A stretch of DNA of 64,000 bases, taken from Alloprevotella tannerae ATCC 51259. Lineage in GTDB: Bacteria; Bacteroidota; Bacteroidia; Bacteroidales; Bacteroidaceae. The DNA lies in the NCBI RefSeq assembly GCF_000159995.1, contig NZ_GG700642.1:886242-950241 (forward strand), written 5' to 3'. Under the pieces are notes generated by a model that had not been told where the DNA came from, made no database searches, and was given only the letters and a program-made list of their open reading frames with translations. Every line of letters starts with the position of its first letter. The stretch's first letter is position 1. Below, piece by piece: positions 3,643 through 59,225 of the stretch. The translations under genes were made by a program, and so were the position numbers.

Positions 3643-3730
3643 CTCGTGAGAAAAAGTCTGTCTTCTCACGAGCGTACAGTCTTTTTATCGTGAGAGAAAA
3701 TTCCTACCATCGAGAGAGGAAATCTTTAGA
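3643..3730. repeat. Four-unit 22-bp tandem array, family A, locus 1
   Basis: Four contiguous units of exactly 22 bp (starting at 3643, 3665, 3687 and 3709) each begin with a CTCGTGAG/CTCACGAG/ATCGTGAG-like core followed by a diverged A/T-rich tail (the last unit reads ATCGAGAG). It fills most of the 320-bp gap between the tRNA terminator and phoH. The same four-unit layout recurs at 15308, 26521, 46030 and 59138. The period and register were counted by hand. Confidence 0.8.
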
Positions 3731-3817
3731 TCTTGTCGAATGCTTTTAAGGGGCTTTCTTCGCATTTTTATTCTTAAGATTAGCTTATCATAGCTTTAGT
3801 ATTTGTGAGATAATAGC

Positions 3818-3825
3818 TACTTTTG
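3818..3825 (+). promoter_or_regulatory. -7 element for phoH-purC
   Basis: TACTTTTG matches TAnnTTTG and lies 19 bp upstream of the chosen phoH start, leaving a very short leader. Confidence 0.5.
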
Positions 3826-3844
3826 CAGCATAAAGAATTGCGAT

Positions 3845-4846
3845 TTGATAGAAAAAATTTTTATTCTCCAGGATGCTGATCCGATGGTCTTTTATGGCGT
3901 AAACAACGCAAATCTTCGTATGCTACGTGCTCTTTTTTCAAAGTTGCGTATCGTAGGGCGCGGAAGTGTGTTGAAAGTCATTGGAAATCCGGAAGATATA
4001 GCTGAATTTGACGTCGTTTATGAGGCGATTTATAGACATTGTGTCAATTATAATAAGCTCACCGAGGAAGATATTGTAACCTTGATCCAAGGCCGAACAA
4101 ACGAACAGCTTGACAAAGAAGGGGTGATTGTCTATTCTACAAGTGGCAAACCGATTCTTGCAAGAAGCCAGAATCAGCAAAAACTTGTGGATGCCTATAA
4201 AAAGGACGATTTGCTCTTTTGCATTGGTCCTGCCGGAACGGGTAAAACGTATACTGCGATTGCTTTAGCCGTCAGGGCCTTGAAAAATAAGGAGGTAAAG
4301 AAGATAATATTAAGTCGTCCGGCTGTAGAAGCCGGAGAAAAGTTGGGCTTTCTTCCTGGAGATATGCGTGAAAAGGTAGATCCTTATCTGCAACCTCTAT
4401 ATGATGCTTTGCAAGAGATGCTTCCTGCAGCCAAATTGCAGGAGTATCTTGATACAAGTGTGATACAGATTGCTCCGTTGGCTTTTATGCGCGGTCGTAC
4501 GTTGAATGATGCTGTCGTAATCTTAGATGAAGCGCAAAATACAACGCGTGCTCAGCTGAAAATGTTTTTAACGCGTATGGGTATGAATACGAAGATGATC
4601 GTCACGGGTGATATTACGCAGATAGATCTTCCGCGTATGCAGCAATCCGGCTTGATTGAAGCGATCCGTATTTTGCGACACATACAAGGTATTTCCTTCG
4701 TCGAGATGGATAAGAGCGACATTGTCAGACATAAGTTGGTTGCACGCATCGTGAAGGCTTACGAGCAAACAACACATAAGAAGGATGATGCCTCGACAAC
4801 GGAAGAGCAACAACAGATTTCAGAAGAATGTTATTCAAATAATTGA
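3845..4846 (+). CDS. phoH: PhoH-family ATPase (YbeZ-like)
   Basis: A cytoplasmic P-loop ATPase of the PhoH family, generally linked to RNA metabolism and ribosome maturation. Walker A is GPAGTGKT at about residues 128-135 and Walker B is VVILDEAQN near 224-232. The 333-residue length is typical. The start is a TTG: the protein then begins MIEKIFILQDADP, which matches the family N-terminus, and no ATG is available nearby. Upstream -7 sequence restricts the start to this region. purC follows after only 3 bp, so the two form an operon. Confidence 0.92.
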   Translation: MIEKIFILQDADPMVFYGVNNANLRMLRALFSKLRIVGRGSVLKVIGNPEDIAEFDVVYEAIYRHCVNYNKLTEEDIVTLIQGRTNEQLDKEGVIVYSTSGKPILARSQNQQKLVDAYKKDDLLFCIGPAGTGKTYTAIALAVRALKNKEVKKIILSRPAVEAGEKLGFLPGDMREKVDPYLQPLYDALQEMLPAAKLQEYLDTSVIQIAPLAFMRGRTLNDAVVILDEAQNTTRAQLKMFLTRMGMNTKMIVTGDITQIDLPRMQQSGLIEAIRILRHIQGISFVEMDKSDIVRHKLVARIVKAYEQTTHKKDDASTTEEQQQISEECYSNN

Positions 4847-4849
4847 GAT

Positions 4850-5794
4850 ATGGCAACTTTAACTAAAACGACCTACCAGTTTCCTGGTCAAATAGGGGTG
4901 TATAATGGGAAAGTACGCGATGTATATAGCATCGAGGGCGACAAACTTATTATGGTCGCAAGCGATCGCATATCGGCCTTTGACGTAATCTTGCCGAAGG
5001 GTATTCCTTTTAAAGGGCAAGTGCTTAACCAAATCGCCGCAAAATTTCTTGATGCGACAACTGATATTTGCCCGAACTGGAAATTAGCCACTCCGGATCC
5101 GATGGTGACTGTCGGTATTACGTGTAAAGGCTTCCCGGTTGAGATGATCGTGCGCGGATATTTGTGCGGATCAGCTTGGCGCGCCTACAAGAATGGTGTA
5201 AGAGAGATCTGCGGGATCAAACTTCCTGATGGGATGCGCGAGAATGAGAAATTTCCTGAACCCATCGTGACGCCGACAACTAAAGCTGAGATTGGCGAGC
5301 ACGATGCTGAAATTTCGAAGGAAGAAATTTTAGCGCAGGGATTCGCTACTCCGGAAGAGTATGCTCTGTTAGAGAAATATACGCTCCAGCTGTTTAAGCG
5401 AGGCACAGAGATTGCTGCTCAGCGCGGATTGATTCTTGTGGATACGAAATATGAATTTGGTCTGCACGATGGTAAGATTTACTTGATGGATGAGATTCAT
5501 ACGCCCGACTCCAGTCGTTATTTCTACAGCGATGGTTATCAAGAACGTTTTGAAAAGGGCGAACCACAACGCCAACTTTCCAAAGAATTTGTGCGCGAAT
5601 GGCTGATGGATAATGGCTTCCAAGGCAAGGAAGGGCAGCAGGTGCCGGAAATGACCGACGAAATCGTTAAGTCTATTTCTGATCGTTATATTGAGCTTTA
5701 CGAGCATATTACGGGCGAAAAGTTTGTTGCAGAAGATAGCGACAAGCTTGAAGAGCGTATAGAGCGCAACGTGTTGCAGTTCTTGCAGCAATAA
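4850..5794 (+). CDS. purC: Phosphoribosylaminoimidazole-succinocarboxamide synthase
   Basis: SAICAR synthetase of purine biosynthesis, which joins CAIR and aspartate at the cost of ATP. The 314-residue protein is of the long type found in Bacteroidetes and eukaryotes. Motifs include 'GKVRDVYSI' (residues 20-28), '[15 protein letters not shown]' (about 36-50), '[14 protein letters not shown]' (about 100-113) and 'LVDTKYEFG', with '[13 protein letters not shown]' near 211-223. It lies 3 bp after phoH and is followed by a strong terminator. Confidence 0.97.
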
Positions 5795-5807
5795 GTTTTG
5801 CTATAAG

Positions 5808-5862
5808 TAATCCGAATTGAGATAGCGTAGAATCCTATCTTCAATTCGGATTATCCTTTTTT
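5808..5862 (+). terminator. Terminator after purC
   Basis: TAATCCGAATTGAGATAG (5808-5825) pairs almost perfectly with CTATCTTCAATTCGGATTA (5835-5853), and TCCTTTTTTATT follows. Confidence 0.92.
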
Positions 5863-5896
5863 ATTCCCCCTTATCGAGCACACGATACTCTTAGAT

Positions 5897-6631
5897 ATGT
5901 ATAAGCAAGAAAAGATCAAACCTTACGACACTGATTCCAGTAAGTCGGAGCAAGTAGAGCAGATGTTTGACAACATTGCTCACTCTTATGATCAGCTAAA
6001 TCATTTTCTCTCTTTAGGAATTGACAAACGATGGCGTCGAGCAGCCATAAAGCAGTTGCGTAGTTTTGAGCCAAAAGAGATTTTGGACGTGGCCACAGGT
6101 ACGGGAGATTTTGCTATTCTTTCGACGCGTTCATTATACCCCAATCAAGTGGTGGGCATAGATATTTCTGAAGGCATGCTTAAGGTTGCACGTCAAAAGG
6201 TAGCTGCGGCTGGATTGTCAGAGAAGATACAATTTAAGAAAGAAGATTGCTTGAATCTGAGTTTTGAGGAGAATAGTTTTGATGCCGTTCAAGTAGCCTA
6301 CGGTGTGCGCAACTTTGAAGATTTAGATAAAGGGCTAAGTGAGATGTTTCGCGTATTAAAGCCAGGGGGGCACGCCATTATTGTTGAATTGAGCAGCCCG
6401 CGCCGCTTCCCAATGCGACAATTATTTCAGCTTTATGCACGCGTGTTGATGCCCCTTGTTGGTCGTCTTATTTCTAAGGATACTAAGGCTTACAGCTATT
6501 TGCCGGCATCTATGGAAGCTGTGCCTCAAGGGCGAGATATGCAAAAGATAATGGAAAAGGCCGGTTTCAAGCACGTGTTTTTCAAATCCTATACCTTTGG
6601 TTTGAATACGATGTATGTGGGCGAAAAGTAA
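5897..6631 (+). CDS. menG: Demethylmenaquinone methyltransferase (UbiE/MenG)
   Basis: A class I SAM-dependent methyltransferase that carries out the last step of menaquinone synthesis. SAM motif I is '[13 protein letters not shown]' near residues 60-72; '[17 protein letters not shown]' and '[19 protein letters not shown]' are UbiE/MenG signatures. The 244-residue length is normal. Menaquinone is the usual quinone of Bacteroidales, so menG is preferred over ubiE. The 3' end overlaps aroE by 17 bp, indicating translational coupling. Confidence 0.94.
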
Positions 6632-7391
6632 TGAGGGCCAACAAATTTATGGCTTGATCGGTTATCCTTTAGGGCATTCCTTTTCAAAGGATTATTTTAA
6701 TAAGAAGTTTTCGCTGTTGCAACTTAATGCGATTTATGAAAACTTCGAATTATCTTCTGCTTGCGCTTTTCCCGAACTCTTACAACGCTTCCCCAATCTT
6801 TGCGGACTGAACGTCACGCTTCCTTATAAGGAGGCAATCATTCCTCATCTTGATGCGCTCTCACCGGAAGCGAAAGCTATTCAAGCCGTCAATGTGATTC
6901 GCTTTACGCCCCAAGGTTTGATAGGCTACAATTCTGACTATTATGGATTTATGACTTCTTTGCGCCCCTTGTTGCGCCCATTTGATCTTCGCGCAGTTGT
7001 ATTAGGGACTGGTGGTGCTGCAAGAGCTGTAGCTTATGCGTTGAGTTTGTTAGGCATAAGCGTACAATTCGTTAGTAGAACAAAAAGAATGGGCGTAATC
7101 ACTTATGAAGAATTAGCCGATATGAAGCTGCTTGCCACAACTTCATTGGTGATCAATTGTACACCGTTCGGAATGCATCCGCACACAACAACATTTCCGC
7201 CTTTGCCTTATCGGGAAATATCTTCTTACCATTTGCTTTATGATTTGATATACAATCCGGAGGAGACGCTCTTCTTATCTCGCGGGAAAGAACAAGGAGC
7301 AATGACGAAGAATGGTTTGGAAATGTTACATCTGCAAGCTGAAAAGGCTTGGGATATTTGGCAAGAACCCTTTGATACATCATCTTTCTAA
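6615..7391 (+). CDS. aroE: Shikimate dehydrogenase
   Basis: AroE reduces 3-dehydroshikimate to shikimate with NADPH. The protein has 258 residues. The substrate-binding part has '[13 protein letters not shown]' (residues 11-23) and '[11 protein letters not shown]' with the catalytic Lys; 'YNSDYYGF' carries the paired Asp. The NADP-binding loop is '[15 protein letters not shown]' near residue 130. The ATG at 6615 lies within menG; the next in-frame start would be a TTG inside the conserved IYGLIGYP stretch, so 6615 is kept. Confidence 0.93.
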
Positions 7392-7450
7392 GGTTTTTCT
7401 GTAGCCTTTATTCAACTATCTCTCCCTTATCTTTTACAAGTACAAAAAAT

Positions 7451-7482
7451 AAAGACGCAAAAGATGAATCTTTTACGTCTTT
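7451..7482 (-). terminator. Terminator of tRNA-Thr
   Basis: AAAGACGCAAAAGAT pairs with ATCTTTTACGTCTTT with one mismatch. On the minus strand it is followed by ATTTTTTG, so it mainly serves the tRNA; it may also stop transcripts from aroE. Confidence 0.8.
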
Positions 7483-7485
7483 AAG

Positions 7486-7558
7486 AGCCGAGAGCCGGAC
7501 TCGAACCGGCGACCTACTCATTACGAATGAGTCGCTCTACCAGCTGAGCTATATCGGC
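7486..7558 (-). tRNA. tRNA-Thr (anticodon CGT)
   Basis: Read on the minus strand it begins GCCGATATAGCTCAGCTGG. The anticodon loop is TTCGTAA inside a CTCAT-type stem, and the T-arm is GCCGG-TTCGAGT-CCGGC. The acceptor arms GCCGATA and TCTCGGC pair except for T6 facing C67. CCA is not encoded. Confidence 0.93.
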
Positions 7559-7575
7559 TTTGCTGATTTGCGGTG

Positions 7576-7583
7576 CAAAGTTA
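7576..7583 (-). promoter_or_regulatory. -7 element for tRNA-Thr
   Basis: TAACTTTG on the minus strand matches TAnnTTTG and lies 17 bp upstream of the tRNA 5' end. Confidence 0.55.
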
Positions 7584-7732
7584 ATGACTTCCTGCGAAAC
7601 TGCCAAGAGTTGCAGAGCCTTTTTCGTGAAAAATATGCTTTATGATGGTTCGAATAAGATACGTTGTTCAGAGACCTTGTATTATGAATCTGTTTGATCG
7701 CATTTTGAAGCGCTTCGATAAGTCTGTTTATG

Positions 7733-7816
7733 GTTTGCTCGGGGCAAACAATCGTTTGCTACCAGCAAACCATCGTTTCTTCCCACCAAACAGTCGTTTG
7801 CCCCGAGCAAACCATA
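7733..7816. repeat. Four-unit 21-bp array, family B, locus 1
   Basis: Four contiguous 21-bp units (7733, 7754, 7775, 7796) of the form GTTTG-N7-CAAAC plus a 4-bp linker ending in ATC-like sequence. Each unit is itself a small inverted repeat; in the third unit the first arm is GTTTC. The array occupies the gap 7559-7923 between the tRNA-Thr promoter and the end of the chromate-transporter pair. A 78-codon frame through it (7642-7878) has no support as a gene. A second array of the same family lies at 50639. Confidence 0.85.
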
Positions 7817-7923
7817 ATAATATGAGGTGGAACAATTCAAAAAGGAGAGTATTATCGCTTGGAAATAGTTGTAAGTAGTAAACTCACAATTCGCTGTCGA
7901 TCATTTTTGATTTGTGCTGCTAA

Positions 7924-8493: not shown

Positions 8494-8502
8494 TTTAAGA
8501 GA

Positions 8503-9036: not shown

Positions 9037-9093
9037 GGGCGTAGCGTTTTATCTCTTAATCAGTATGAACTGTTTCTTGAGCTAACTTATTGC

Positions 9094-10632: not shown

Positions 10633-10792
10633 TGTGTTTGCGTTTAAACGATACGCGAAGATAAATACATTATTCTGAAAATGCAATCTTTACTGTTTGA
10701 TTTTCACGCCTTGCAATTTTATTTCTCTCTTCTTATGACATTCTCTTAGACTATTTGGAGTCAGTCGTAGAAAAGTGTACGTGAGTAGTATT

Positions 10793-11182: not shown

Positions 11183-11215
11183 AATTGAGGTAAGATTAAA
11201 ATGGTATATATGCTA

Positions 11216-11244: not shown

Positions 11245-11266
11245 CTTTGTTGTTTTGCAAGGCTGA

Positions 11267-12460: not shown

Positions 12461-12497
12461 AATTGTGTATTATTGTTAGTGATTAAAAATGTTTTAT

Positions 12498-14925: not shown

Positions 14926-15307
14926 CATCGCAGGGAGCAGTCGGGTAGTTCTATCTTTTCCGCATTCTTATCTGAGCAATGATATGGGAAGTAGCCGATA
15001 TCTCCAACAAGCGTGAGCTTTTATTCCTTGAAATAATTTCTTTTAATACGCAAGTAAACAGTCTAATATCGTACTTTCGTAAAAGTGATTTATGAGAGCT
15101 GTTTTTGTTGATATAAAGGATAGCTTTCAAATTAGTCGTTCGTCAATTTTGCGCTTTTTGATGGGGTTATTATTCGGCAAATAAGCCTCAGCGTGCAGAT
15201 AAGTTTGCATCGTGATTCTTTCCTTAAAAATGTGCTTTCTCAGCACCCGTTTATAAACACTATTTGCTTTGAGGTTCTGCTGCAACTCTCAGCTTACGCC
15301 TTGTCCC

Positions 15308-15395
15308 ATCGTGAGAGCAAGACCTTCTTATCGTGATGATACGAACGTACGCTCGCGAAAGAACAAACGTGCGCTCACGAGCGTACACTGTCCAT
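15308..15395. repeat. Four-unit 22-bp tandem array, family A, locus 2
   Basis: Units start at 15308, 15330, 15352 and 15374 with cores ATCGTGAG, ATCGTGAT, CTCGCGAA and CTCACGAG; tails contain ACGAACGTACG-like sequence. It lies in the 564-bp gap 14926-15489 between convergent genes. Apart from a possible 30-codon ORF at 15092-15184, I see nothing else in that gap. Confidence 0.8.
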
Positions 15396-20688: not shown

Positions 20689-21170
20689 TCGACGTTCTTT
20701 ATATAAGTCCTCGACACCTTTAAGTATAAATCCTCGACATCTTCAAGTATAAGTCCTCGACATCTTTAAGTATAAATCATCTCACACTCCTTATAGGATT
20801 CCTCTTGCACCCCTTATAGGACTCCTCTTGCATCCCTTATAGGACTCCTCTTGCACCCCTTATAGGACTCCTCTTGCACCCCTTATAGGACTCCTCTTGC
20901 ATCCCTTATAGGACTCCTCTTGCATCCCTTATAGGACTCCTCTTGCACTCCTTATAGGACTCCTCTTGCATCCCTTATAGGACTCCTCTTGCATCCCTTA
21001 TAGGACTCCTCTTGCACTCCTTATAGGACTCCTCTTGCACTCCTTATAGGACTCCTCTTGCACTCCTTATAGGACTCCTCTTGCACTCCTTATATGACTC
21101 CTCTTGCACTCCTTATAGAACTCCTTGACATCTTAAAATATGAGCCCTTAACGCCACCTATAAGGCGTCT
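20689..21170. repeat. Long 23-bp tandem array, family C (about 20 units)
   Basis: From 20711 to 21170 the sequence is 20 contiguous units of exactly 23 bp, preceded by one 22-bp unit. Three early units have TCGACATCTTTAAGTATA-like sequence; fifteen units (20780-21124) have TCTTGCAYYCCTTATAGGA-like sequence, and the last two are degenerate but keep the period. Variation among the central units is almost confined to two positions after GCA. It fills most of the 927-bp gap between pyrD and pheT. There are no unique spacers, so it is not CRISPR. Confidence 0.95.
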
Positions 21171-21421: not shown

Positions 21422-23911
21422 ATGAACATTTCGTATAATTGGCTTAAAGAATATGTCGATTTTGACCTCTCTGCAGAAGAAGTGGCCAAAGCGCTCACAT
21501 CTATAGGTCTGGAGGTTGATGATATAGAAGAATTCCAAACGATAAAGGGCGGATTAAAGGGCATTGTAGTAGGCGAGGTCTTAACTTGTGAGCCTCATCC
21601 CAATTCAGACCATATGCATGTTTGCTCTGTAGATTTGGGAGCAGGCAGTCCTATACAAATAGTTTGTGGAGCTGCGAATATTGCTGCCGGACAGAAAGTG
21701 ATGGTTGCAACAATCGGCACGACTCTTTACGATGGAGAAGACAGCTTTAAGATAAAGAAATCAAAGCTTCGCGGAGTTGAAAGCTTCGGTATGATTTGTG
21801 CGGAAGATGAAATAGGCGTTGGGACTGATCAAAACGGAATTATAGTTCTTCCTGCTGAAGCACAAGTTGGAACTCCGGCTGCGAAATATTACGAATTAGA
21901 GTCTGACTATATTATAGGTGTAGATATTACGCCTAATCGTTCAGATGCGTGTTCACACTATGGAGTTGCCAGAGACTTGTATGCTTGGCTGGTAAGAAAC
22001 GGTCATAAGACAGCTCTTCATCGACAAGATGTCGCTGCTTTCTCGGTAGATAACAAGGACCTTGATATAGCCATTCAAATAGACGCACCGGAAGGCTGCC
22101 CTCGCTATTGTGCGGTGACCTTGTCCGATTGCGAGGTGAAAGAAAGCCCTACGTGGTTGAAGAATCGATTATTATCTATTGGCGTTAGGCCAATTAATAA
22201 TATAGTCGACATAACCAACTACGTAATGTTTGCTTATGGACAGCCGCTTCATTGTTTTGATGCCGATATGGTCAAGGGCAACAAGGTTATCGTACGGACT
22301 TGCTCGGACGGTGAGCCATTTGTTACCTTGGATGGAGAAGAGCATAAACTAGATGGAAAAGACTTAGCCATTTGCAATGCGGAAGAACCTATGTGCATTG
22401 CGGGAATCTTGGGAGGAAAAGGTTCTGGCACTTATGAGACGACGAAGAATATCTTGTTTGAAAGTGCCTACTTTAATCCAACTTGGATTCGTAAAAGCGC
22501 TCGTCATCATGCGATCAGCACAGATGCCAGTTTCCGCTTTGAACGTGGTATAGATCCGGAAGGGCAGATTTACGCGCTGAAGGTTGCGGCCATGTTGGCG
22601 AAAGAGTTGTCCGGAGGTAAGGTTTCTATGGAGATTAAAGAAGTTAATCCCATCAAGCAACCTTCTCATTTCACCGTTGATTTGACCTACCAATATATAC
22701 ACGAGGTAATCGGAATAGAAATTCCTGTTGATGTTATCAAAGAGATTGTTACCTCTCTTGAAATGAAGATTGCGGAAGAGACAGAAAGTGGACTGCAACT
22801 TCTTGTTCCTTCTTATAGAGTAGATGTACAGCGTCCCTGCGATGTAGTCGAAGATATTTTACGTATTTACGGTTATAACAATGTTGGTCTGCCCAAGCAA
22901 ATGAATACTTGCCTAACAATTCAGGGTGAAGAAGACCGCTCCTACAAATTGCAAAATTTGATTTCGGAGCAATTGGTTGGACAGGGCTTTAATGAAATTA
23001 TGAATAACTCTTTGACGAAAGAGAGTTATTATACTGAATTAAATGCCTATAAAAATGAGTATCTTGTTCATATAATGAATCCTTTAAGTGGAGATTTGAA
23101 TGTGCTCAGACAGACGCTGCTTTTTGGTGGAATGGAATCCATTACGCGTAATGTAAACCGCAAGACTTCTAATCTAAGGTTTTTTGAAATAGGCAAATGC
23201 TATCGCGTTGATGCTAAACTGCAAAACGCAGAAGGCAAGGGTGAAGAGCAAACTGCTAAAACAGTAAACCGCTATTCGGAGTCATATCATTTAGGCTTGT
23301 GGATTACCGGAAAACGTGTCGAAAACAACTGGGCGCATCCAAATGAAGAGTCCAGCGTATTTGAATTAAAAGGCTACGTACAAGACATTTTAGTTCGATT
23401 AGGCCTTTCTTTTAAAGGGCTCAAGACGGAAGAATCAGATAATAACCTTTTCAGCAAAGGACTTGTCTTAAAAGACAGAAACGATAAAGTCCTATTAGAA
23501 TTTGGTGTGGTGGCTCGCCGCATTAATGCTTTATTCGACTTAGACCAAGAAGTTTATTTTGCCGATTTGCATTGGGATGAATTGATGCGTAAGACGGCAA
23601 AAAATAAGGTGGAATTTGTAGAAATAGCCAAATACCCATCCGTAAGTCGCGACTTAGCCTTATTGGTTGATAAAACCGTGAAGTTTGCAGAGATTGAACG
23701 GATTGCATTTGAGGCAGAGCGGAAATTGCTCAAATCAGTTACGCTTTTTGACGTGTACGAAGGGAAAAATTTGGGGGCTGATAAGAAAAGCTATGCTGTC
23801 AACTTTACGCTCCAAGATGAGAATAAGACTTTGAATGATAAGCAAACGGAAGCTGTCATGAACAAGATTATTCAGCAACTTCAGAAGCAGCTAAACGCTA
23901 CATTGAGATAA
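21422..23911 (+). CDS. pheT: Phenylalanyl-tRNA synthetase beta subunit
   Basis: The 829-residue beta subunit of the alpha2-beta2 enzyme. In order: N-terminal part 'MNISYNWLKEYVDFDLSAEEVAKAL', the tRNA-binding OB domain ('VGEVLTCEPHPNSDHMHVCSVDLG', about residues 48-71), the B3/B4 editing domain ('RYCAVTLSDCEV', 'INNIVDITNYVMF'), B5, a catalytic-like core and the C-terminal FDX-ACB domain ('AKYPSVSRDLALLVD', near residue 740). Length is complete. The alpha subunit is not in the window, as is usual in Bacteroidales. Confidence 0.97.
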   Translation: MNISYNWLKEYVDFDLSAEEVAKALTSIGLEVDDIEEFQTIKGGLKGIVVGEVLTCEPHPNSDHMHVCSVDLGAGSPIQIVCGAANIAAGQKVMVATIGTTLYDGEDSFKIKKSKLRGVESFGMICAEDEIGVGTDQNGIIVLPAEAQVGTPAAKYYELESDYIIGVDITPNRSDACSHYGVARDLYAWLVRNGHKTALHRQDVAAFSVDNKDLDIAIQIDAPEGCPRYCAVTLSDCEVKESPTWLKNRLLSIGVRPINNIVDITNYVMFAYGQPLHCFDADMVKGNKVIVRTCSDGEPFVTLDGEEHKLDGKDLAICNAEEPMCIAGILGGKGSGTYETTKNILFESAYFNPTWIRKSARHHAISTDASFRFERGIDPEGQIYALKVAAMLAKELSGGKVSMEIKEVNPIKQPSHFTVDLTYQYIHEVIGIEIPVDVIKEIVTSLEMKIAEETESGLQLLVPSYRVDVQRPCDVVEDILRIYGYNNVGLPKQMNTCLTIQGEEDRSYKLQNLISEQLVGQGFNEIMNNSLTKESYYTELNAYKNEYLVHIMNPLSGDLNVLRQTLLFGGMESITRNVNRKTSNLRFFEIGKCYRVDAKLQNAEGKGEEQTAKTVNRYSESYHLGLWITGKRVENNWAHPNEESSVFELKGYVQDILVRLGLSFKGLKTEESDNNLFSKGLVLKDRNDKVLLEFGVVARRINALFDLDQEVYFADLHWDELMRKTAKNKVEFVEIAKYPSVSRDLALLVDKTVKFAEIERIAFEAERKLLKSVTLFDVYEGKNLGADKKSYAVNFTLQDENKTLNDKQTEAVMNKIIQQLQKQLNATLR

Positions 23912-26388: not shown

Positions 26389-26520
26389 CGCATCTCCCAT
26401 AAGTTGTTCGGTAAATAAATCTATGCTTAAGCAAGCATCAGTAAAGCTCACTACTAAACCCTAATTTTTCCGACGCTTAGTCTGGTTTTTGCAGACGAAC
26501 TCCTTTTTTTGCATTGTACT

Positions 26521-26608
26521 ATCGTGAGCGTACAGCTCTTTTCTCACGATGATACAAACGTACGCTCGTGATGGTACGACTTTGTTATCGCGATAAAAAG
26601 TGGAAAAG
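26521..26608. repeat. Four-unit 22-bp tandem array, family A, locus 3
   Basis: Units start at 26521, 26543, 26565 and 26587 with cores ATCGTGAG, CTCACGAT, CTCGTGAT and ATCGCGAT. The array lies between convergent genes. Confidence 0.8.
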
Positions 26609-37740: not shown

Positions 37741-37825
37741 ATTGTTTATTGTTTTAAGTTATGAAAAAGGGTGCCGTTCGTCTTGGAGCGGCACCCGGTT
37801 AATACTATTGTTTTGTGTGTTCTCC

Positions 37826-37940
37826 TGTACTCCTATAAGGACTTGTCTTGTACTCCTATAAGGACTCCTTTTGTACTCCTATAAGGACTCCTTTTGTACT
37901 CCTATAAGGACTCCTCTTGTACTCCTATAAGGAGTGTAAG
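37826..37940. repeat. Five-unit 23-bp array, family C', next to HU-like gene 1
   Basis: Five contiguous 23-bp units (37826, 37849, 37872, 37895, 37918) with TGTACTCCTATAAGGACTCC-like sequence; a sixth degenerate unit may follow to 37963. The core CCTATAAGG is the reverse complement of the core CCTTATAGG of the long array at 20689, while the flanking ACTCCT keeps the same orientation. It lies between the HU-like gene start and the end of the lipoprotein gene. Confidence 0.9.
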
Positions 37941-39947: not shown

Positions 39948-40304
<357 letters not shown>

Positions 40305-40345
40305 CTTCACACCCACCCGCCGGGCATCGTAATCGTATTTGGGAG

Positions 40346-40377
40346 CAAAGGTAAGGCCTTTTATTGAAACCGGCAAA
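40346..40377 (-). promoter_or_regulatory. Promoter of the CA-repeat ORF and lipoprotein operon
   Basis: TTTG at 40374-40377 and TACCTTTG at 40346-40353 on the minus strand, separated by 20 bp. This is close to the full Bacteroidetes consensus. The -7 box ends 41 bp before the ATG at 40304. Confidence 0.75.
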
Positions 40378-40466
40378 TATCGCAGGGAAAAAGACGCGAG
40401 TTTAGGCGAACAATCGACTATTTCCCGCAACAAATTTATATAACGATACGAAAAAAGCACGCCCAC

Positions 40467-40488
40467 AAGCCCTTAGGCTTGGTCTTTT
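40467..40488 (+). repeat. Palindromic element, copy 1 (AAGCC-CTTA-GGCTT)
   Basis: AAGCC and GGCTT arms around CTTA, followed by GGTCTTTT. Related to 40546-40567 and, inverted, 41704-41726. The arm base change is compensated on the other arm. Confidence 0.5.
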
Positions 40489-40545
40489 GGCAGGGCAGGC
40501 GTTGGAACGAAGTGACAACCCTGCCACGATGCGCCGCAAAAGTAC

Positions 40546-40567
40546 AACCCCCTTAGGGTTGGTCTTT
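40546..40567 (+). repeat. Palindromic element, copy 2 (AACCC-CCTTA-GGGTT)
   Basis: AACCC and GGGTT arms around CCTTA, followed by GGTCTTTC. Same layout as copy 1. Confidence 0.5.
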
Positions 40568-40598
40568 CAAATTCGTCCGCGTATCGGCAAAGGTGCAG

Positions 40599-40704
40599 GC
40601 TCTTCGGGGAATTTTTACGGGCTATTCAAGGTGTTTTGCAGGCTCTTCGGGGGAGTGATTAGCTCTTCAGGGCCTTATGCCGGCTCTTCGGATCGTTTTG
40701 TCGG
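40599..40704. repeat. Five-unit approximately 21-bp array, family D
   Basis: GCTCTTC-type units start at 40599, 40621, 40642, 40662 and 40683, spaced 22, 21, 20 and 21 bp, with GCTCTTCGGGG-like starts and T-rich tails. The last unit contains the -33 box of the HU-like gene 2 promoter. It accounts for the upstream half of the gap 40305-40787 together with the palindromic elements. Confidence 0.7.
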
Positions 40705-40787: not shown

Positions 40788-41198
40788 ATGATTAAATTCG
40801 TTATCAGAGCGAAGAAAAATCCGCTCAAGAGAGATCAAGTGAAATTTTATCCGCAGATGGCGCCGGGCGTACCCGTACTCTTGCGCACGATTGTCGGGCG
40901 CATCGAGAAGCGTTCGGGCGTATCTTCGGCCTCCGTCAAGGCGGTCTTGGATGCATTGCAATATGAGATTCTCGAAACGCTTGCGGACGGCAATTCGGTT
41001 CGCTTAGGCGATCTTGGCTCTTTCCATCTGACGATGCACGCCGAGGGTACGTTGACGGCGAAAGAGGCCAAGGAAAAAGGGGCAAATCTCATTAAGCGCG
41101 TAAGCGTGCGGTTTACGAAAAGCAGTACGATGCGGATGGCTCTCGACAAGCGCAACTCAATCTTCGGTGCGCAGAACGATATTCTGAATGCGAAGTAG
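40788..41198 (+). CDS. HU-like DNA-binding protein (Bacteroidetes type) 2
   Basis: A 136-residue HU/IHF-fold protein: 'LLRTIVGRIEKRSGVSSASVKAVLDALQYEILETLADGNSVRLGDLGSFHLTM' covers the two alpha helices and the beta turn 'GNSVRLGDLGSF'; the C-terminus 'RVSVRFTKSSTMRMAL' is basic. It differs from HU-like protein 1 in sequence. It sits between a repeat array upstream (40599) and another downstream (41346), with a strong promoter and its own terminator, and it is flanked by inverted palindromic elements. Confidence 0.9.
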   Translation: MIKFVIRAKKNPLKRDQVKFYPQMAPGVPVLLRTIVGRIEKRSGVSSASVKAVLDALQYEILETLADGNSVRLGDLGSFHLTMHAEGTLTAKEAKEKGANLIKRVSVRFTKSSTMRMALDKRNSIFGAQNDILNAK

Positions 41199-41290: not shown

Positions 41291-41345
41291 TCTTCTTGAA
41301 TTTTGCCCGTTTTTCGTGTGTGCGAGGATAGGTTTCGGACAAACT

Positions 41346-41584
41346 TTCCTATAGGATCGGAAAAATTGTCTTAGGTGAAAGTTTAAACTCTCTTATAGGA
41401 GAGTTGAAATTGTCTTATAGGAAAGTTTCAACGATCGTAGGTGAAAGTTTGGCGAGGGTGCGGAGGTGGGTGAATCGGAGTGCGAAGGTGGTGAGTTGAG
41501 GTGCGGAGATGGTAAATCGAGGTGCCGGAAGTGGTGAAACGGGGTGCGGAGATGGTGAATCGGAGTGCCGAAAGCGGTATCTTT
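41346..41584. repeat. About ten-unit 21-22-bp array, family E
   Basis: Units begin near 41369, 41391, 41413, 41435, 41457, 41479, 41501, 41522, 41543 and 41564, so the period is 22 and later 21 bp. Early units carry CTTATAGGAAAGTTT-like sequence (sharing CTTATAGG with family C), and later ones change to GTGCGGAGGTGG...GAATCGG. It lies in the 682-bp gap 41199-41880 between convergent genes. The rest of that gap holds the inverted palindrome copy at 41704, a CCACTAC/GTAGTGG hairpin at 41743-41762 and an AT-rich motif at 41830-41846. Confidence 0.75.
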
Positions 41585-41703
41585 TGTAGCTGAATCCTCG
41601 ATGAAATCAGCATTTTTTGAACTTTTCTTCCGTTTCTATCTTACTTTTTGCGCGTTTCCGTAAAAGCGCGAAGCGCCCTTTATCCATAAATTAGGATGTT
41701 TTT

Positions 41704-41726
41704 GAGAGACCAACCTTAAGGGGTTG
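41704..41726 (-). repeat. Palindromic element, copy 3 (inverted)
   Basis: On the minus strand it reads AACCCCTTAAGGTTGGTCTC-like, matching the copies at 40467 and 40546 in opposite orientation. Together they bracket HU-like gene 2 and its arrays. Confidence 0.5.
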
Positions 41727-41880
41727 TCAATCTTACCTTGCTCCACTACGGGGCTGTAGTGGATTAAATAAGTTGACAGTTTGAAAGCTCACAAAACACG
41801 TATGTCAAGATTAAATATAATGTCCGGCCTATATATATAATGTATACGGCTCAAGCGGACGGCGCAGCGGCCGCTCTCTT

Positions 41881-45890: not shown

Positions 45891-46029
45891 TTCTTGCTGA
45901 CAGCCCACGCCGACTTGCGCACAACTGATACCGCGCCGCGTAGAAGCCTAAGGTAAACGGACAAAGTAGTCTTAGGGCAATGCGTTCTCTTCGCTACCAT
46001 ACAAGCAGCGTCAGTTCACGCCCCTTGCG

Positions 46030-46117
46030 CTCACGATGAAAAGAGTTTGCGCTCGTGAGGTGAAGCCTTTTTTATCACGAGCGCAAGCCTTTTTTCTCGT
46101 GATAAAAAACCTCATCC
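46030..46117. repeat. Four-unit 22-bp tandem array, family A, locus 4
   Basis: Units start at 46030, 46052, 46074 and 46096 with cores CTCACGAT, CTCGTGAG, ATCACGAG and CTCGTGAT; middle units end AAGCCTTTTTT. It lies between the convergent DPP-IV and small lipoprotein genes (gap 45783-46367), which otherwise hold only the two terminators. Confidence 0.85.
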
Positions 46118-50314: not shown

Positions 50315-50638
50315 TGGCGCGGAGCGTCCGGCCAAGCCCTCTCTCCATGCTGTTGTAGCGCCATTGATCTCCCCATTTTTGATCCATACCGCTTATATAT
50401 TATGGCGTATGGCTGCCTATCGCAAGCTTTACGCCCAATTATTCGGCTCGCAGTGGCCGATTTTTTTTGCTTCTTGCTTGCCTGCAATGCTCTTTTTTAC
50501 AATGGTTTGGCCGCCCCTCTTGTTTTCGTTTCCTTTTCTCTCACAATCTTTTTTCTGACCTTGATAAATCGCGGCTAAGGGACAACAAATTGCACGACAA
50601 CCGCTGCTATGCTGCTGTTCTTTCCTTATCGTACTATT

Positions 50639-50722
50639 GTTTGCTCCCACCAAACGATGGTTTGACCCCACCAAACGATAGTTTGCTCCCACCAAACAAT
50701 GGTTTGCTCCCGCCAAACGAAA
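50639..50722. repeat. Four-unit 21-bp array, family B, locus 2
   Basis: Units start at 50639, 50660, 50681 and 50702: GTTTGCTCCCACCAAAC plus GATG/GATA/AATG/GAAA. Same geometry as locus 1 at 7733 (GTTTG-N7-CAAAC). It lies in the 612-bp gap 50315-50926 between convergent genes. ORFs across that gap (50295-50558, 50467-50913) have no family likeness and one merely reads the repeats. Confidence 0.85.
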
Positions 50723-52122: not shown

Positions 52123-52302
52123 TGCTCGAATAGCTTAAACTTATTTTCCGTATGCATATCGGCAAATGCAAAAATAATCTTTCTCTTTGAAGAATAAGGC
52201 TTTTACGGAAAAGAATGGCGTGTAGGAATAAAAGAAACAAGACGACAGAAAGCGATGCGGAAAGCTGCTCACGGTAGGGTTTGCTACGCTTTTTCAAGAC
52301 GT

Positions 52303-52340
52303 AAAAACCTCCCGCCTTGTTGTTGGCGGGAGGTTTCAGA
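52303..52340 (-). terminator. Terminator of secA
   Basis: AAACCTCCCGCC and GGCGGGAGGTTT form a 12-bp stem around TTGTTGTT; on the minus strand GTTTTTAC follows. Confidence 0.88.
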
Positions 52341-52358
52341 AACAATGAAAGGGCCTGT

Positions 52359-55300: not shown

Positions 55301-55727
55301 CGTGTGTGGCTGCCAAATCACGATCAAAGTCTGTCGCTTCGACAGCAATGGTTTCGTTCTCAGCAAAGCGCCTTGCCGTAGACTTCACTATGGAGAATGC
55401 TTCAGGCATCACCTCATCGAGGGCCTTTTCAAAGCGTTCGAGAACATCTTTCTCCAACTTATCGATTTGCGTGAAAATAGTTTCGCGGTTTTCGATAGGT
55501 GTTTCTTCGACCTTTCCTTTCAGTTCGTTGATTTTCTCTTTAATATCATCGGCCGAGTGTTGCACTTTTTCTTGCAACTCCTTTGTCTTTGCGCGCAAAG
55601 CGTCATTATCCAGTTCGTCAATCGTAGGATAGACGGCTTTAATCTTTTCGACAAAGGGTTGAATCAGCTTCATATCGCGCTGCGACTTATTGCCGAAAAG
55701 TTTTTGTAGGAATTGTATTATATCCAT
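52359..55727 (-). CDS. secA: Preprotein translocase ATPase SecA
   Basis: A 1122-residue SecA, longer than the E. coli enzyme and typical of Bacteroidetes. Visible: '[20 protein letters not shown]' (Walker A region, near residue 190), '[19 protein letters not shown]' (Walker B), '[44 protein letters not shown]' elements of the helicase part, and the C-terminal zinc-binding '[20 protein letters not shown]'. An extra insertion near residues 350-480 includes '[18 protein letters not shown]'. It drives protein export with SecYEG. The ATG at 55727 is used. Confidence 0.98.
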
Positions 55728-55818
55728 TGTAGTATATGATTTCTAATTTTGAGTTTCCGCCGCGTGCCACACATTATATATATATGTATACCCGAGCATA
55801 GCGGAGGAGAATAAAAGT

Positions 55819-57414
55819 TTAATTGATTTTCAGCGGAGCCAGTTTGCAAGCATTCGGCGCTCGAATGCGCATAGCTTGCGAGAGCGTCGGCGCGATGTAA
55901 TCTACCGTCACGGGCGTCCCTATTTGTCCGGCGACAACGCTATAACCGAAGAAGATAATAGGGAAAGGTACATACGACGCGCGCACCAATTGATTTTCGT
56001 GCGTGTCTGCATTCACGTAGCGCCAGCCCGGTGCCACCTCAATATAAACGTCGCCCGAGAAGCGCGGATTATACCCATTTCGCACCTTGTTTATGCCCGG
56101 CGTCCATGCGCCTTGCAGCAGACGTTGCGAAGTATACACATCCTTCACGCCCTCCAATTGCAGCAGGAAGTCCTGAATGTGTTCAAGAACGTTACTCAAA
56201 TTCAGCTGTCGGCGCTCCAACAATTTTCGATCCAAGTAAAGCTGAGTGCCCAAGCAGCTTTCTATGTATTGTCCCTGCCCATAAACGGCCGAGAGATACA
56301 TATTTAGCAACGAGACAGACCGTTTTACGTCAAACGTCCCGCCCGGTATCTTGTATTTGTTTAAATCTTCGTTTTCCTCATCTTCCGTACCGGTCGAAGT
56401 CAGTACGAATAAAGTGTTGTCAAGCCCCACCTTTTGCTCCACCGCCGCCAAGATTTTCGCCAGCGCTTGATCCAAACGCACGTAAGTATCTTGCAATTCC
56501 ATCGGCGCAGCTGACGCCGGTCGGTGGTTAAAGTTGCCCGCGTAGAGCGTCAGGGCCAGATAATCCGTCAGCGCATCTGTGCCGATTGACGTTGCCGAAA
56601 GGCATTGCTCCGCCAACCGCGCCACTTCCTCATTGACGAGTCCGCTCGTCTTGTATAAGCGGAAACGTTCGTCGCCCACAAACTTGTGGGAGAACGGCCG
56701 CTTCATACCGCCCGACAAGAAATAACTGAAATTGCCCACCAAAGGAGAGGAAGGCTTCCACGTCAGTCCTTTTATCTGCATCGCCGGACTCGCCGTGCTG
56801 TTGCGCACGTTGACCCAAGCGGGCATAGCGCCGTAGTATTGCGTAGAGCACCACTGTCCCGTCGCGTCATCGATCCATACCGCGCCGTCAGCCGCGTGTC
56901 CGGCCGTCAGAATGGCCGCCTCGCGGAAAGGCGCGATGGCATAAACGAGCGCTTTACCCTCCGTCGCAGCCTTCAGTTCGTCGCCGATGGTCGATACGGC
57001 CAAGTATTGCGGACTCGAAGCTGTCGAGGTGTTGGTGCCGGTAAAGTTCTTGTCGTCTACGCAGCCTACGGGGCGTAGCGTAGTGCGATCCAAGCGGCGT
57101 AGGCCTATGATGCCGTGATCGGAAGCGCTCGTGCCGGTGGCGATGTCAGCCGCCGCCGTGGCCATATCCGTAGGCAACGCAGTCGATTCTGCTTGCGAAT
57201 AGACCAAACCTTGATTGAGCAAGCGTTTGAAGCCATCTTCGCCGTAGAGAGGTAGGAAAGCGTTCAGATAGTCGGAACGCAAACGATCCACCAATATGTT
57301 GACCACCAACTTCGGTGCAGGGCGTGCGCCGGCAGTCGGGATTGCCTCTGCGGCCGACAGCGTTGTGAGCACGGCCAGCAAGGAGACAATGAAGCGATGG
57401 CGAGAATTATCCAT
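55819..57414 (-). CDS. PafA-like alkaline phosphatase superfamily protein, probably inactive
   Basis: A 531-residue exported protein (signal peptide about residues 1-24) with the architecture of PafA-type alkaline phosphatases. The first Asp ligand region is kept ('LVVNILVDRLRSDYLNAF'). The nucleophile Thr region reads 'ALPTDMATAAADIATG', the D-x-x-x-H ligands are replaced in 'YAGNFNHRPAS', the DH pair is replaced in 'FVLTSTGTEDEE' and the last His is replaced in 'ASYVPFPIIFFG'. The alignment is by eye. It may be a structural or binding protein. It overlaps the DUF4105 gene by 8 bp. Confidence 0.75.
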   Translation of the reverse strand: MDNSRHRFIVSLLAVLTTLSAAEAIPTAGARPAPKLVVNILVDRLRSDYLNAFLPLYGEDGFKRLLNQGLVYSQAESTALPTDMATAAADIATGTSASDHGIIGLRRLDRTTLRPVGCVDDKNFTGTNTSTASSPQYLAVSTIGDELKAATEGKALVYAIAPFREAAILTAGHAADGAVWIDDATGQWCSTQYYGAMPAWVNVRNSTASPAMQIKGLTWKPSSPLVGNFSYFLSGGMKRPFSHKFVGDERFRLYKTSGLVNEEVARLAEQCLSATSIGTDALTDYLALTLYAGNFNHRPASAAPMELQDTYVRLDQALAKILAAVEQKVGLDNTLFVLTSTGTEDEENEDLNKYKIPGGTFDVKRSVSLLNMYLSAVYGQGQYIESCLGTQLYLDRKLLERRQLNLSNVLEHIQDFLLQLEGVKDVYTSQRLLQGAWTPGINKVRNGYNPRFSGDVYIEVAPGWRYVNADTHENQLVRASYVPFPIIFFGYSVVAGQIGTPVTVDYIAPTLSQAMRIRAPNACKLAPLKIN

Positions 57415-58705
57415 GTTGATGGGATATATTTTTTTGTCCGGCGCAAGATTTTTTTCTTCCGTTGCGCTGTAGGGAGTACAATGACAGGCCGCGTACTAAC
57501 AAGACGCTTGCCAAAATATAAATTTCCGGCGGATATTGTTGAAAGAATGCCGAAATCAAGAGGTAAACGACTAAAAACAAGTCGACGTAGGGGGTATAAA
57601 AATCGATTCTTTCTTTCCTATCCCGCCAAATCTTCCATGGCAAGAGCAGCAAAGGCAGCGGATTGAGCCAAACGATCAGCCAATTGGAGTCGACGGTCGG
57701 ATGTTCGGAGAAGAAGAATAAGAGGAAGACCAAGCAGCCCGCCAAGCCCGTCACCAACATCAAGAAATCGTCGAATAACCGACCGAGCAGCCTCCATCTC
57801 CGCTTGTGTTCGGCCCAAGCGGCCGCGCAAGCTAAAAAGAGCAGTAGCCATACGGCTTTCAGCGGCGTGAAGAAAGGCTTCGCTTTGGTCGCTCTGGGTG
57901 TTACTTCCACCAAATAGCCGTCGTGCGAAACCAAGGCTTGGCGCTCACCCGAGCCTCTGATAACGGCCGCGCGGCGCAAAATGCTTTCCGTATAAAAAGG
58001 AAAGGCCAGTTCGGCGCGCGAGGTCAGCGGCGTATCTACGGCGCAGCCCAGAATAATGTCCTGTCCGAAGCGATCCCAAGGGTTTTCCGGCGTCACGCAA
58101 CTGTGAATAATATCGCGAAACGTCGTGCGTTGCTTTTCAGGGGGCAGTTCGAGGCGTCCATCCAGTGCCTGTTCGATCATAACGACCAAGCGCGAAGCGC
58201 AATTGTCTCCCAAAAAATTATAGCGATACGTCCAATCAGGCTCAGCCGCGTTTTTGCGCAGCGCTTCGACCAAGCGTGCAGCTTCTGCGGGGCGCAAAGC
58301 GAGCACTTGCTCTCTGATGCTCCGCCCGTTGTCTACGTATTCGGCAATGAAGTAGGGGGTAGGCACGACGCCGACCGTATAATCCGTTTGTCCCAGCACA
58401 AAACGCCACGTGAAGTTGGGCTTTGAAAAGGAGAACACGCCATAGTTGTAGACCAAGTCTTCGTTGGTCTTCACGTTTTTCACGCGTAGCGCCGAGTGCC
58501 CGTAAAGTTCGTAAGTCTTTTGTCCGGCTGTGCAGGTCAAAAGGCTGATAACGAAGCTGTCTACACTTATTTTTTCATCCACCTTCGGCCCGATTTCATT
58601 TTGCTTTGTGCCCTTTCCAAAATCGGCCGACTGCTGCGCCGACGCCGTAATCGGAGTCGTCAAGAGCCAGATGAAGATGAAAAGTATGCTGCTAAAATGA
58701 TGCAT
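57407..58705 (-). CDS. DUF4105 (Lnb N-terminal-like) membrane protein
   Basis: From ATG 58705 it has 432 residues: signal peptide (MHHFSSILFIFIWLLTTPITASAQ), a DUF4105 domain ('TAGQKTYELYGHSALRVKN', 'YNYGVFSFSKPNFTWRFVLGQTDYTV', and 'YRYNFLGDNCASRLV' with a Cys/His/Asn hydrolase-like arrangement), and about five C-terminal membrane segments. A papain/NlpC-like activity has been suggested for the domain. The earlier in-frame start at 58771 lies upstream of the promoter and is rejected. Confidence 0.88.
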   Translation of the reverse strand: MHHFSSILFIFIWLLTTPITASAQQSADFGKGTKQNEIGPKVDEKISVDSFVISLLTCTAGQKTYELYGHSALRVKNVKTNEDLVYNYGVFSFSKPNFTWRFVLGQTDYTVGVVPTPYFIAEYVDNGRSIREQVLALRPAEAARLVEALRKNAAEPDWTYRYNFLGDNCASRLVVMIEQALDGRLELPPEKQRTTFRDIIHSCVTPENPWDRFGQDIILGCAVDTPLTSRAELAFPFYTESILRRAAVIRGSGERQALVSHDGYLVEVTPRATKAKPFFTPLKAVWLLLFLACAAAWAEHKRRWRLLGRLFDDFLMLVTGLAGCLVFLLFFFSEHPTVDSNWLIVWLNPLPLLLLPWKIWRDRKERIDFYTPYVDLFLVVYLLISAFFQQYPPEIYILASVLLVRGLSLYSLQRNGRKKSCAGQKNISHQHG

Positions 58706-58726
58706 TGCCGAGGTCAAATTTGCTTG

Positions 58727-58757
58727 CAAAGGTAGTGCAAACGAAACAGAGTGCAAA
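58727..58757 (-). promoter_or_regulatory. Consensus promoter of the DUF4105 gene
   Basis: TTTG (58754-58757), 19 bp, TACCTTTG (58727-58734) on the minus strand; the leader is about 17 bp. Confidence 0.82.
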
Positions 58758-58767
58758 GCAAATATGA

Positions 58768-58899
58768 TCAAACCTTTACGCAGCTACCGCCCTCCATCGT
58801 TGATTCCTGCCACGCCAACTCGTAAAACGGCGTGATGAGGTTGGGAATATTGGGCATTTGAGGCCCGTTCAGCGCTTCGTCCGTTTGGTCTTTGCATGT
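58768..58899 (-). pseudogene. Possible small ORF or gene remnant
   Basis: The minus-strand frame reads ...DEALNGPQMPNIPNLITP, then FYELAWQESTMEGGSCVKV and a stop, which looks protein-like in composition, but it is closed by a stop codon about 43 codons upstream. The only ATG in frame gives 29 residues. It ends next to the DUF4105 promoter. It could be the tail of a decayed gene or a small peptide. Not recognised. Confidence 0.3.
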
Positions 58900-59137
58900 T
58901 TAGATATAGCCTTGTATAGTGTTGCTCGCTCAGTTTCCCCTCCGCTCCTCAACTGCGCTCGCTAAAGGGGCTTTTTCTGTTTCTCTTGTTTTTCTTTTAA
59001 GGGCATATCCTGCTGATGACTGTCGGCGTAAACTCGTAATTGCTTGATAATCTTTGGAAAATATGCAAGAAGAGTTGCAACTCTAAAGGCCTTACTCTGG
59101 TTTTCCAACCCTCGCCGCCAAGTTGGCGGAGTGTGCG

Positions 59138-59225
59138 CTCGTGAGGTGAAACCTTTTTCATCACGAGCGTAAGCCTTTTTTATCGTGAGATGAAGCCTTT
59201 TTCATCGTGAGCGTAAACGGGAGAT
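59138..59225. repeat. Four-unit 22-bp tandem array, family A, locus 5
   Basis: Units start at 59138, 59160, 59182 and 59204 with cores CTCGTGAG, ATCACGAG, ATCGTGAG and ATCGTGAG; tails are GAAGCCTTTTT-like, almost the same as at 46030. It lies in the gap 58706-59373 between two leftward genes. The remainder of that gap has the DUF4105 promoter, the possible remnant and the terminator below. Confidence 0.88.

What the first reader, a model, noticed from the sequence alone, without database searches (positions are those of the whole stretch)
3643..59225. Network of intergenic tandem arrays with units of 21-23 bp in at least ten loci
Seen directly: arrays at 3643, 7733, 15308, 20689, 26521, 37826, 40599, 41346, 46030, 50639 and 59138 all have units of 21, 22 or 23 bp, yet belong to about five unrelated sequence families (A-E). 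Eleven arrays in 64 kb, none overlapping a supported gene, cannot be chance. The period is close to two turns of B-DNA, so every unit presents the same helix face. That points to a fixed-face protein lattice, a nucleoid or transcription-boundary structure, or a replication-slippage product under structural selection. The function is inferred; I do not know this as a described system.
Basis: partly seen in the sequence, partly recalled or inferred. Interest (0 to 1): 0.85.

Follow-up and report, generated by a model that had tools for sequence, protein, structure and literature searches.

The report
Quartets of phased palindromes between genes
Between the genes of this Bacteroidales bacterium sit many short DNA arrays built of a set number of near-palindromes two helix turns apart, kept at a distance from one another and made of different letters in related species, which looks like an undescribed way of marking or organising the chromosome.

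Summary
In detail: 10 of the 11 listed arrays are supported; 40599 is too weak. In a 1.064-Mb sample (41%) of the window's genome, intergenic tandem similarity peaks at lags 21, 22 and 23 (48, 73, 17 hits; at most 4 at any other lag from 10 to 41). The two main families are not ordinary minisatellites. Among arrays of three or more units, family A (NATN-GTTTG-SYSSSRS-CAAAC, 21 bp) has exactly four in 30 of 35; family B (TCRYGA core, 22 bp) in 44 of 50. They lie between genes (83 of 85 outside called genes), keep more than 3 kb apart, also between families, and fold less stably than chimeras of their own parts, which speaks against an RNA hairpin. Several other Bacteroidales have 22-bp arrays of other sequence, some with a fixed unit number; one genus relative has none. 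My reading: fixed-number, operator-like dyad arrays, spread as blocks, bound by dimers on one DNA face. Protein and function are inferred, not shown. The nearest known element, BrickBuilt of P. gingivalis, differs.

The parts
3636..3723 (.). family B array, four TCRYGA-type dyads at 22 bp (last core TCGAGA)
7731..7814 (.). family A array, four GTTTG-N7-CAAAC dyads at 21 bp (core 7733-7812)
15301..15388 (.). family B array, four dyads at 22 bp (third core TCGCGA)
20702..21125 (+). 23-bp family (E): about 3 units of one type, then 14.8 homogenised copies of another; upstream of the PheT-like gene 21422-23911
26514..26601 (.). family B array, four cores at 22 bp, one of them TCGCGA
   Evidence: not found by the lag test
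37822..37933 (+). 23-bp family (E), 4.9 copies
40596..40652 (+). weak 21-bp array, not counted as supported
   Evidence: 2.7 copies, 66% match
41341..41450 (+). 22-bp array with CTTAGG/CTATAGG cores (family C), about 5 units by eye; a related array lies beside a second HU-HIG gene in L164
41456..41578 (+). 21/43-bp array GGTGCGGAGRTGGTGAATCG, adjoining the previous one
46023..46110 (.). family B array, four dyads at 22 bp
50637..50720 (.). family A array, four dyads at 21 bp; 0.86 identical in its 36 variable columns to the array starting near L225:19211 in reverse orientation
59131..59218 (.). family B array, four dyads at 22 bp

Best explanation
The two main families are fixed-number arrays of operator-like dyads acting as double-stranded DNA. 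Each array holds four near-palindromic sites two helix turns apart (family A 4 x 21 = 84 bp, family B 4 x 22 = 88 bp), so that four protein dimers would sit side by side on one face. Whole arrays spread by copying, in either orientation, and are then held to their core letters by selection at each site. That arrays keep apart, also across families, suggests that one array per several kb is enough or more is harmful, as expected for a boundary or anchoring node between transcription units. Shown here: nearly fixed number and spacing, conserved positions, sharp ends, intergenic placement, mutual avoidance, less folding than chimeras. Suggested: whole-array kinship. Inferred: dimer binding, the protein, selection at each site, and the boundary role.
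For: Unit counts 4 in 30 of 35 (A) and 44 of 50 (B); five control motifs or spacings gave 0, 0, 0, 0 and 1 chain. Positions outside the search motif are conserved too: the AT of the spacer in 89 and 88 of 90, and the five S positions of the inner seven, which swap G and C freely but are A or T in only 33 of 600 (sums mine). S-versus-W is what the minor groove distinguishes (established knowledge), so half-site readout plus a minor-groove or shape constraint at the centre is a natural reading. In B the A at half-site position 8, not part of the search motif, is kept in 351 of 352 half-sites, and information drops to near zero 8 nt outside the last core, a few farther columns reaching about 0.5 bit. 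Real arrays fold less stably than part-shuffled chimeras: A -35.4 against -39.8 (sd 0.8), B -26.1 against -30.5 (sd 0.8), 20 of 20 shuffles each; for A also when the G-rich/C-rich strand pattern of the loops is kept (-38.8, sd 0.8; 20 of 20). Neighbouring arrays closer than 3 kb: 6 of 74, against 24% in a null matched for intergenic length, 0 of 2000 simulations; CV 0.43 against 0.63. A-B neighbours: 0 of 20 below 3 kb, 4.15 expected, 7 of 2000 simulations. Best whole-array pairs exceed the mean best of chimera sets (A 0.86 against 0.74; B 0.86 against 0.76).
Against: No binding protein was identified. Folding against plain dinucleotide shuffles is strong (mean z -5.6 for A, -3.1 for B; random intergenic windows -0.4), as dyad arrays must be, so an RNA or cruciform role is not excluded. 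Loops within an A array tend to have the same strand G-rich (5 of 2000 shuffles as coherent), which accounts for a part of the weaker folding. Less folding could also come from loss of unstable palindromes. The largest identity among 50 chimera sets was 0.833 (A) and 0.861 (B), so whole-array kinship is suggestive, not proven. Several unrelated families in one genome would need several proteins or shape recognition. The search needed three units, so arrays of one or two are not counted. A genus relative sampled at 400 kb (G004) has no intergenic hit at 21-23, so the system is dispensable. Hoylesella oralis hits are partly long homogenised arrays and none of its 9 arrays passed the palindrome test. 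Gene calls are my own simple model and miss small genes.
Confidence: 0.45

Rival explanations
1. Selfish dispersed elements (MITE- or REPIN-like): the four-dyad block is the minimal unit moved by an unknown transposase; spacing reflects target immunity and purging near genes.
For: Best whole-array pairs at distant loci are more alike than the average best chimera pair, some in reverse orientation; sharp ends; intergenic, as MITEs normally are (PMC10969869, passages). The A pattern was found in none of 200 other genomes of the family.
Against: Conserved positions stay nearly invariant, also those outside the search motif, while the rest is widely diverged; no common flank apart from one other repeat of about 115-190 bp at 5 loci, a few short weaker pairs and self-palindromes among 168 flanks; A and B also avoid each other; the one Y1_Tnp gene found is flanked by a different palindrome family.
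Confidence: 0.3
2. RNA-level hairpins: terminators, 3'-end stabilisers or attenuators.
For: Strong predicted folding against dinucleotide shuffles. Convergent regions carry arrays more often (26 of 79, against 60 of 309 co-directional and 19 of 90 divergent); B arrays are convergent in 16 of 50 (about 20% in the null) and A arrays in co-directional regions lie nearer the 3' end in 12 of 16.
Against: Folding is weaker than in part-shuffled chimeras; loops within A arrays and most notable arm pairs in B are anti-complementary; 14 of 85 A and B arrays lie in divergent regions, and median distances to gene ends are 235 to 385 bp in co-directional regions.
Confidence: 0.12
3. Minisatellites made and kept by replication slippage.
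For: Fits the 23-bp family: 14.8 copies at 20785-21125, 22.9 in L118, 4.9 at 37822.
Against: Fits A and B poorly: four units at most loci, and units within an array are only slightly more alike than units of different arrays (0.51 against 0.46; 0.55 against 0.49).
Confidence: 0.08

Closest known systems
BrickBuilt minisatellite/MITE of Porphyromonas gingivalis (PMC4596501: abstract, sections 5 and 8, part 1 of section 7, and passages read)
   Same: Bacteroidales; always intergenic; 23-nt tandem units without spacers; 19 copies in one strain; the paper also cites 22-, 23- and 41-nt tandem repeats in strain W83.
   Different: BrickBuilt has 1 to 22.8 units, leader and tail with IS5-like terminal repeats, one sequence family. 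Families A and B have mostly exactly four dyads, no shared leader or tail found, and stand beside other families of like architecture. The window's 23-bp family is nearest in form; kinship by sequence could not be tested, as the text read does not print the 23-nt letters.
REP/BIME and REPIN-RAYT palindromes (recalled)
   Same: Short dispersed intergenic palindromes, genome-specific families, fixed small grouping (REPINs are pairs).
   Different: REPs are not known to me as fours phased at two helix turns; in this genome the one Y1_Tnp/RAYT-like gene is flanked by another palindrome family.
Cooperative regulators on phased repeats, such as BldC (PMC5859096: passages)
   Same: Several protein copies on regularly spaced repeats on one DNA face; one operator there has four repeats.
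   Different: BldC sites are direct repeats one turn apart at promoters, not dyads two turns apart at many intergenic places.

Membership tests
BrickBuilt MITE | 23-nt tandem unit | tested here: not met
   A is 21 and B is 22 bp; only the 23-bp family has it
BrickBuilt MITE | leader and tail regions shared between copies | tested here: not met
   blastn of 168 flanks of A and B arrays: 38 rows, of which the strong ones are one repeat at 5 loci, on varying sides. Not tested for the 23-bp family
BrickBuilt MITE | IS5-like terminal repeat GAGACCTTTGCA | tested here: not met
   3 matches at up to 2 mismatches in the window, 5.3 expected by chance; one of them (45803) lies about 210 bp from the 46023 array
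REP/REPIN-RAYT | RAYT gene flanked by the same palindrome family | tested here: not met
   one Y1_Tnp match in G000, flanked by GAGAGACCAACCC-type palindromes; a family C type array lies about 500-700 bp upstream, beside the HU-HIG copy
intrinsic terminator array | hairpins favoured by selection | tested here: not met
   real arrays fold less than part-shuffled chimeras, though more than dinucleotide shuffles
intrinsic terminator array | RNA 3' ends at the arrays | not testable with these tools
   no RNA data
minisatellite/VNTR | variable copy number with homogenised units | tested here: not met
   four units in 74 of 85 A and B arrays, units little homogenised; the 23-bp family varies between loci. 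Variation among strains was not testable
protein operator array | dyad half-sites conserved, fixed phasing | tested here: met
   with the ascertainment limit that half-site letters are part of the search motif
protein operator array | bound protein | not testable with these tools
   needs pull-down or ChIP

The most novel reading that the evidence does not exclude
Bacteroidales share a class of chromosome element defined by architecture and not by sequence: a set number (four or five) of protein dyads two helix turns apart, placed between transcription units and kept apart from one another, whose letters are replaced wholesale between species (binding protein and sites co-evolving), so that it acts as a fast-evolving nucleoid or transcription-domain boundary.
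Probability: 0.3. Interest if true: 0.88.

Novelty: new variant of a known kind. Interest (0 to 1): 0.72.

Why it matters
If right, at least some Bacteroidales carry a large set of nucleoprotein sites (122 arrays in the 41% of this genome sampled) that gene-centred annotation does not name. They would make chromosome domain structure in this order testable, give a DNA bait to fish out the proteins, and pose an evolutionary question: why number and helical phase are kept while the letters turn over. Even if selfish, a mobile unit that keeps four phased dyads would be unusual.

Tried and rejected
Terminal repeats and shared flanks as a sign of a larger element: not found for A and B. RAYT as mobiliser: present but flanked by another palindrome family. 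RNA hairpin: first favoured, then weakened. Loop-to-loop pairing as the cause of G/C freedom in A: no positive covariation, rather anti-complementarity (four of six unit pairs at z -2.0 or below). Arms in B: of 28 arm pairs two are positive and four negative at |z| above 2.5. Evenness of counts per 20 kb: not unusual (273 of 1000 simulations as low); only neighbour distance is. Strict placement at 3' ends: rejected, with a lean that is told among the rivals. A generic palindrome test with permuted columns: 21 of 69 own arrays at p 0.05 or less, 6 of 8 P. lacticifex, 4 of 12 Parabacteroides, 3 of 5 H. loescheii, 0 of 9 H. oralis, 13 of 44 in other pheT loci; controls at other lags 1 of 13, 6 of 26 and 1 of 6; array limits were ragged, so I rely on the motif counts. 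Upstream of pheT as a recurrent array place: suggestive only (10 of 52 regions against 23 of 247 others, p 0.05). A first gene model was too strict and was replaced. The first spectrum counted runs of N as matches and was redone. The H. oralis motif that I guessed gave no chain. Literature: searches, of which 29, 30 and 44 returned nothing; PMC6749651 abstract and passages (no word beginning with 'bacteroid' in its main text); PMC4060949 and PMC5771137 passages only.
Full report
What was checked. The window is G000:C6:886242-950241 of a 2.59-Mb, six-contig genome. No tool names the organism; the best pheT relatives are Bacteroidales, and an Alloprevotella-like species is my guess from recall. 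A lag test supports 9 of the 11 listed arrays, a motif chain a tenth (26521), and 40599 is too weak to count.

Genome scale. I took 50 further stretches of 20 kb and, with the window, studied 1.064 Mb. In its 196 kb of intergenic DNA (846 called genes, regions of 60 bp or more) similarity at lags 21, 22 and 23 gives 48, 73 and 17 hits, and at most 4 at every other lag from 10 to 41; 112 of 512 intergenic regions hold such a hit. E. coli K-12 (four 50-kb stretches) gives 1 hit at 21 and none at 22 or 23. Gene calls come from my own dicodon model, which misses small genes.

Anatomy. Chains of three or more units were counted; shorter ones are not seen. Family A: 35 arrays, four units in 30 (three arrays with 3, one with 5, one with 6), unit step 21 in 104 of 105. 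Family B: 50 arrays, four units in 44 (four arrays with 3, two with 5), unit step 22 in 147 of 148. Five control motifs or spacings gave 0, 0, 0, 0 and 1 chain. A reads NATN-GTTTG-SYSSSRS-CAAAC. B reads as 11-bp half-sites Y-G-A-K-V-R-N-A-M-R-S about a TCRYGA core; the A at position 8, not in the motif, is kept in 351 of 352 half-sites; information falls to near zero 8 nt outside the last core, with a few farther columns near 0.5 bit. So A is 84 bp and B 88 bp, about eight turns each. The 23-bp family (20702-21125 and 37822-37933 here) is different: about 5 to 23 copies. Family C (41341-41450) has about five or six units by eye and was not counted.

Placement. Of the 85 A and B arrays 83 lie outside called genes (7 of these have no called gene on one side); the 2 overlaps are with marginal ORFs. 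In co-directional regions the median distance is 235 and 308 bp to the 3' end and about 353 and 385 bp to the 5' end (A, B); A is nearer the 3' end in 12 of 16, B in 12 of 22. B is convergent in 16 of 50, about 20% expected; A is divergent in 9 of 35. By the lag test, 26 of 79 convergent, 19 of 90 divergent and 60 of 309 co-directional regions hold a hit. Regions of 600 bp or more hold an array in 78 of 106 cases. Flanks are unique apart from one repeat at 5 loci and a few short pairs.

Avoidance. Among 74 neighbour pairs 6 are closer than 3 kb, against 24% in a null matched for intergenic length: 0 of 2000 simulations; CV 0.43 against 0.63. Split by family: A-B 0 of 20 (4.15 expected, 7 of 2000 simulations as low), A-A and B-B 0 of 16 (3.17 expected, 26 of 2000), pairs with other arrays 6 of 38 (10.3 expected, 92 of 2000). 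Counts per 20 kb are not more even than the null. So arrays avoid each other locally, also across families; there is no strict ruler.

Copying against local growth. In the best pairs, variable columns of whole arrays at distant loci are more alike than the mean best of chimera sets (A 0.86 against 0.74, B 0.86 against 0.76), though the single best of 50 chimera sets reached 0.833 and 0.861. Units within an array are only slightly more alike than units of different arrays. This suggests spread as blocks and later divergence; slippage does not explain A or B well.

DNA or RNA. Against dinucleotide shuffles the arrays fold strongly (mean z -5.6 and -3.1, random intergenic windows -0.4), as arrays of dyads must. 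Against chimeras made of their own loops or arms they fold less (A -35.4 against -39.8; B -26.1 against -30.5; 20 of 20 shuffles each). A loops share their G-rich strand within an array (5 of 2000 shuffles), which explains only part: with that pattern kept, chimeras still fold more (-38.8; 20 of 20). I read this as recognition of double-stranded DNA with hairpins avoided; loss of unstable palindromes would look alike. That G and C are interchangeable at inner positions is what minor-groove or shape readout would give (established knowledge, applied by inference).

Other genomes. The A pattern occurs in none of 200 other genomes of the family at up to 1 mismatch, and a 541-bp probe of the 23-bp family in none of 40 relatives. 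Arrays of other sequence with the same period occur in the order. Hits at lag 22: Prevotella lacticifex 9 in 200 kb (8 arrays), Parabacteroides sp. Marseille-P3160 13 in 200 kb (12 arrays, some in duplicated stretches), Hoylesella oralis 14 in 180 kb (9 arrays with lag 23 included; some are long and homogenised), H. loescheii 6 in 80 kb (5 arrays, beside 16- and 24-bp ones). With motifs drawn from those arrays, H. loescheii has four units in 5 of 5; Parabacteroides TCATARYTATGA four in 5 of 5 (3 distinct) and GAAAGATCTTTC three in 2 of 2; P. lacticifex 3, 4 or 5 in 4, 2 and 4 of 10, by eye three inner units plus a variant unit at each end in 9 of 10; H. oralis gave no chain. Of 80 pheT loci of other Bacteroidales, MAG fragments included, 36 have an intergenic hit at lag 21-23, 14 at 18-20 and 10 at 24-26. 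Against: G004 of the same genus has no intergenic hit at 21-23 in 400 kb and carries 9/18-bp arrays instead; of four more genus stretches only G016 shows 21-bp arrays. Outside the order, twelve stretches of the class gave 4 hits (three from one stretch, A+T-rich; one at 22 in L241 that I cannot judge) and eight of other classes none; these are single 20-kb stretches.

Known systems. BrickBuilt (PMC4596501) is the nearest: a 23-nt intergenic minisatellite within a MITE in P. gingivalis, with variable copy number, leader, tail and IS5-like ends; A and B do not meet those features. A survey of prokaryotic satellites (PMC6749651, abstract and passages) has no word beginning with 'bacteroid' in its main text. 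My searches found no description of a fixed-number dyad array in this order; most subscription papers are not held.

Verdict. The most likely nature is a set of fixed-number, operator-like dyad arrays acting on DNA, spread as blocks and kept apart; protein and boundary role are open.

Noticed in passing
L164:1459-1935 (+) and L164:950-3342: A Y1_Tnp (RAYT-like) gene in the window's genome amid repeated palindromes (GAGAGACCAACCCTATGGGGTTG, CAAGCCCTTAGGCTTGGTC), like a REP system; by eye, similar palindromes lie near window 40470-40560 and 41690-41730.
   Followed up: partly
window 40788-41198 and L164:201-611: Two HU-HIG genes, each with a similar 22-bp array downstream, as if duplicated together.
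   Followed up: partly
G004 stretches L122-L141: A genus relative carries 9/18-bp intergenic arrays (GTGAACRCC, GAAGTTARM) and no 21-23 bp ones.
   Followed up: no
L198, L200, L201: Hoylesella loescheii also has 16- and 24-bp intergenic arrays.
   Followed up: no
flanks at L207, L212, L213, L214, L224: Another dispersed repeat of about 115-190 bp near five family B arrays.
   Followed up: no
window 40113-40193: A perfect (TG)40.5 run inside the ORF 39948-40466; an AC run lies in L115.
   Followed up: no
pheT upstream region in other Bacteroidales loci: Arrays of differing sequence occur upstream of pheT in 10 of 52 loci with a region of at least 130 bp.
   Followed up: partly
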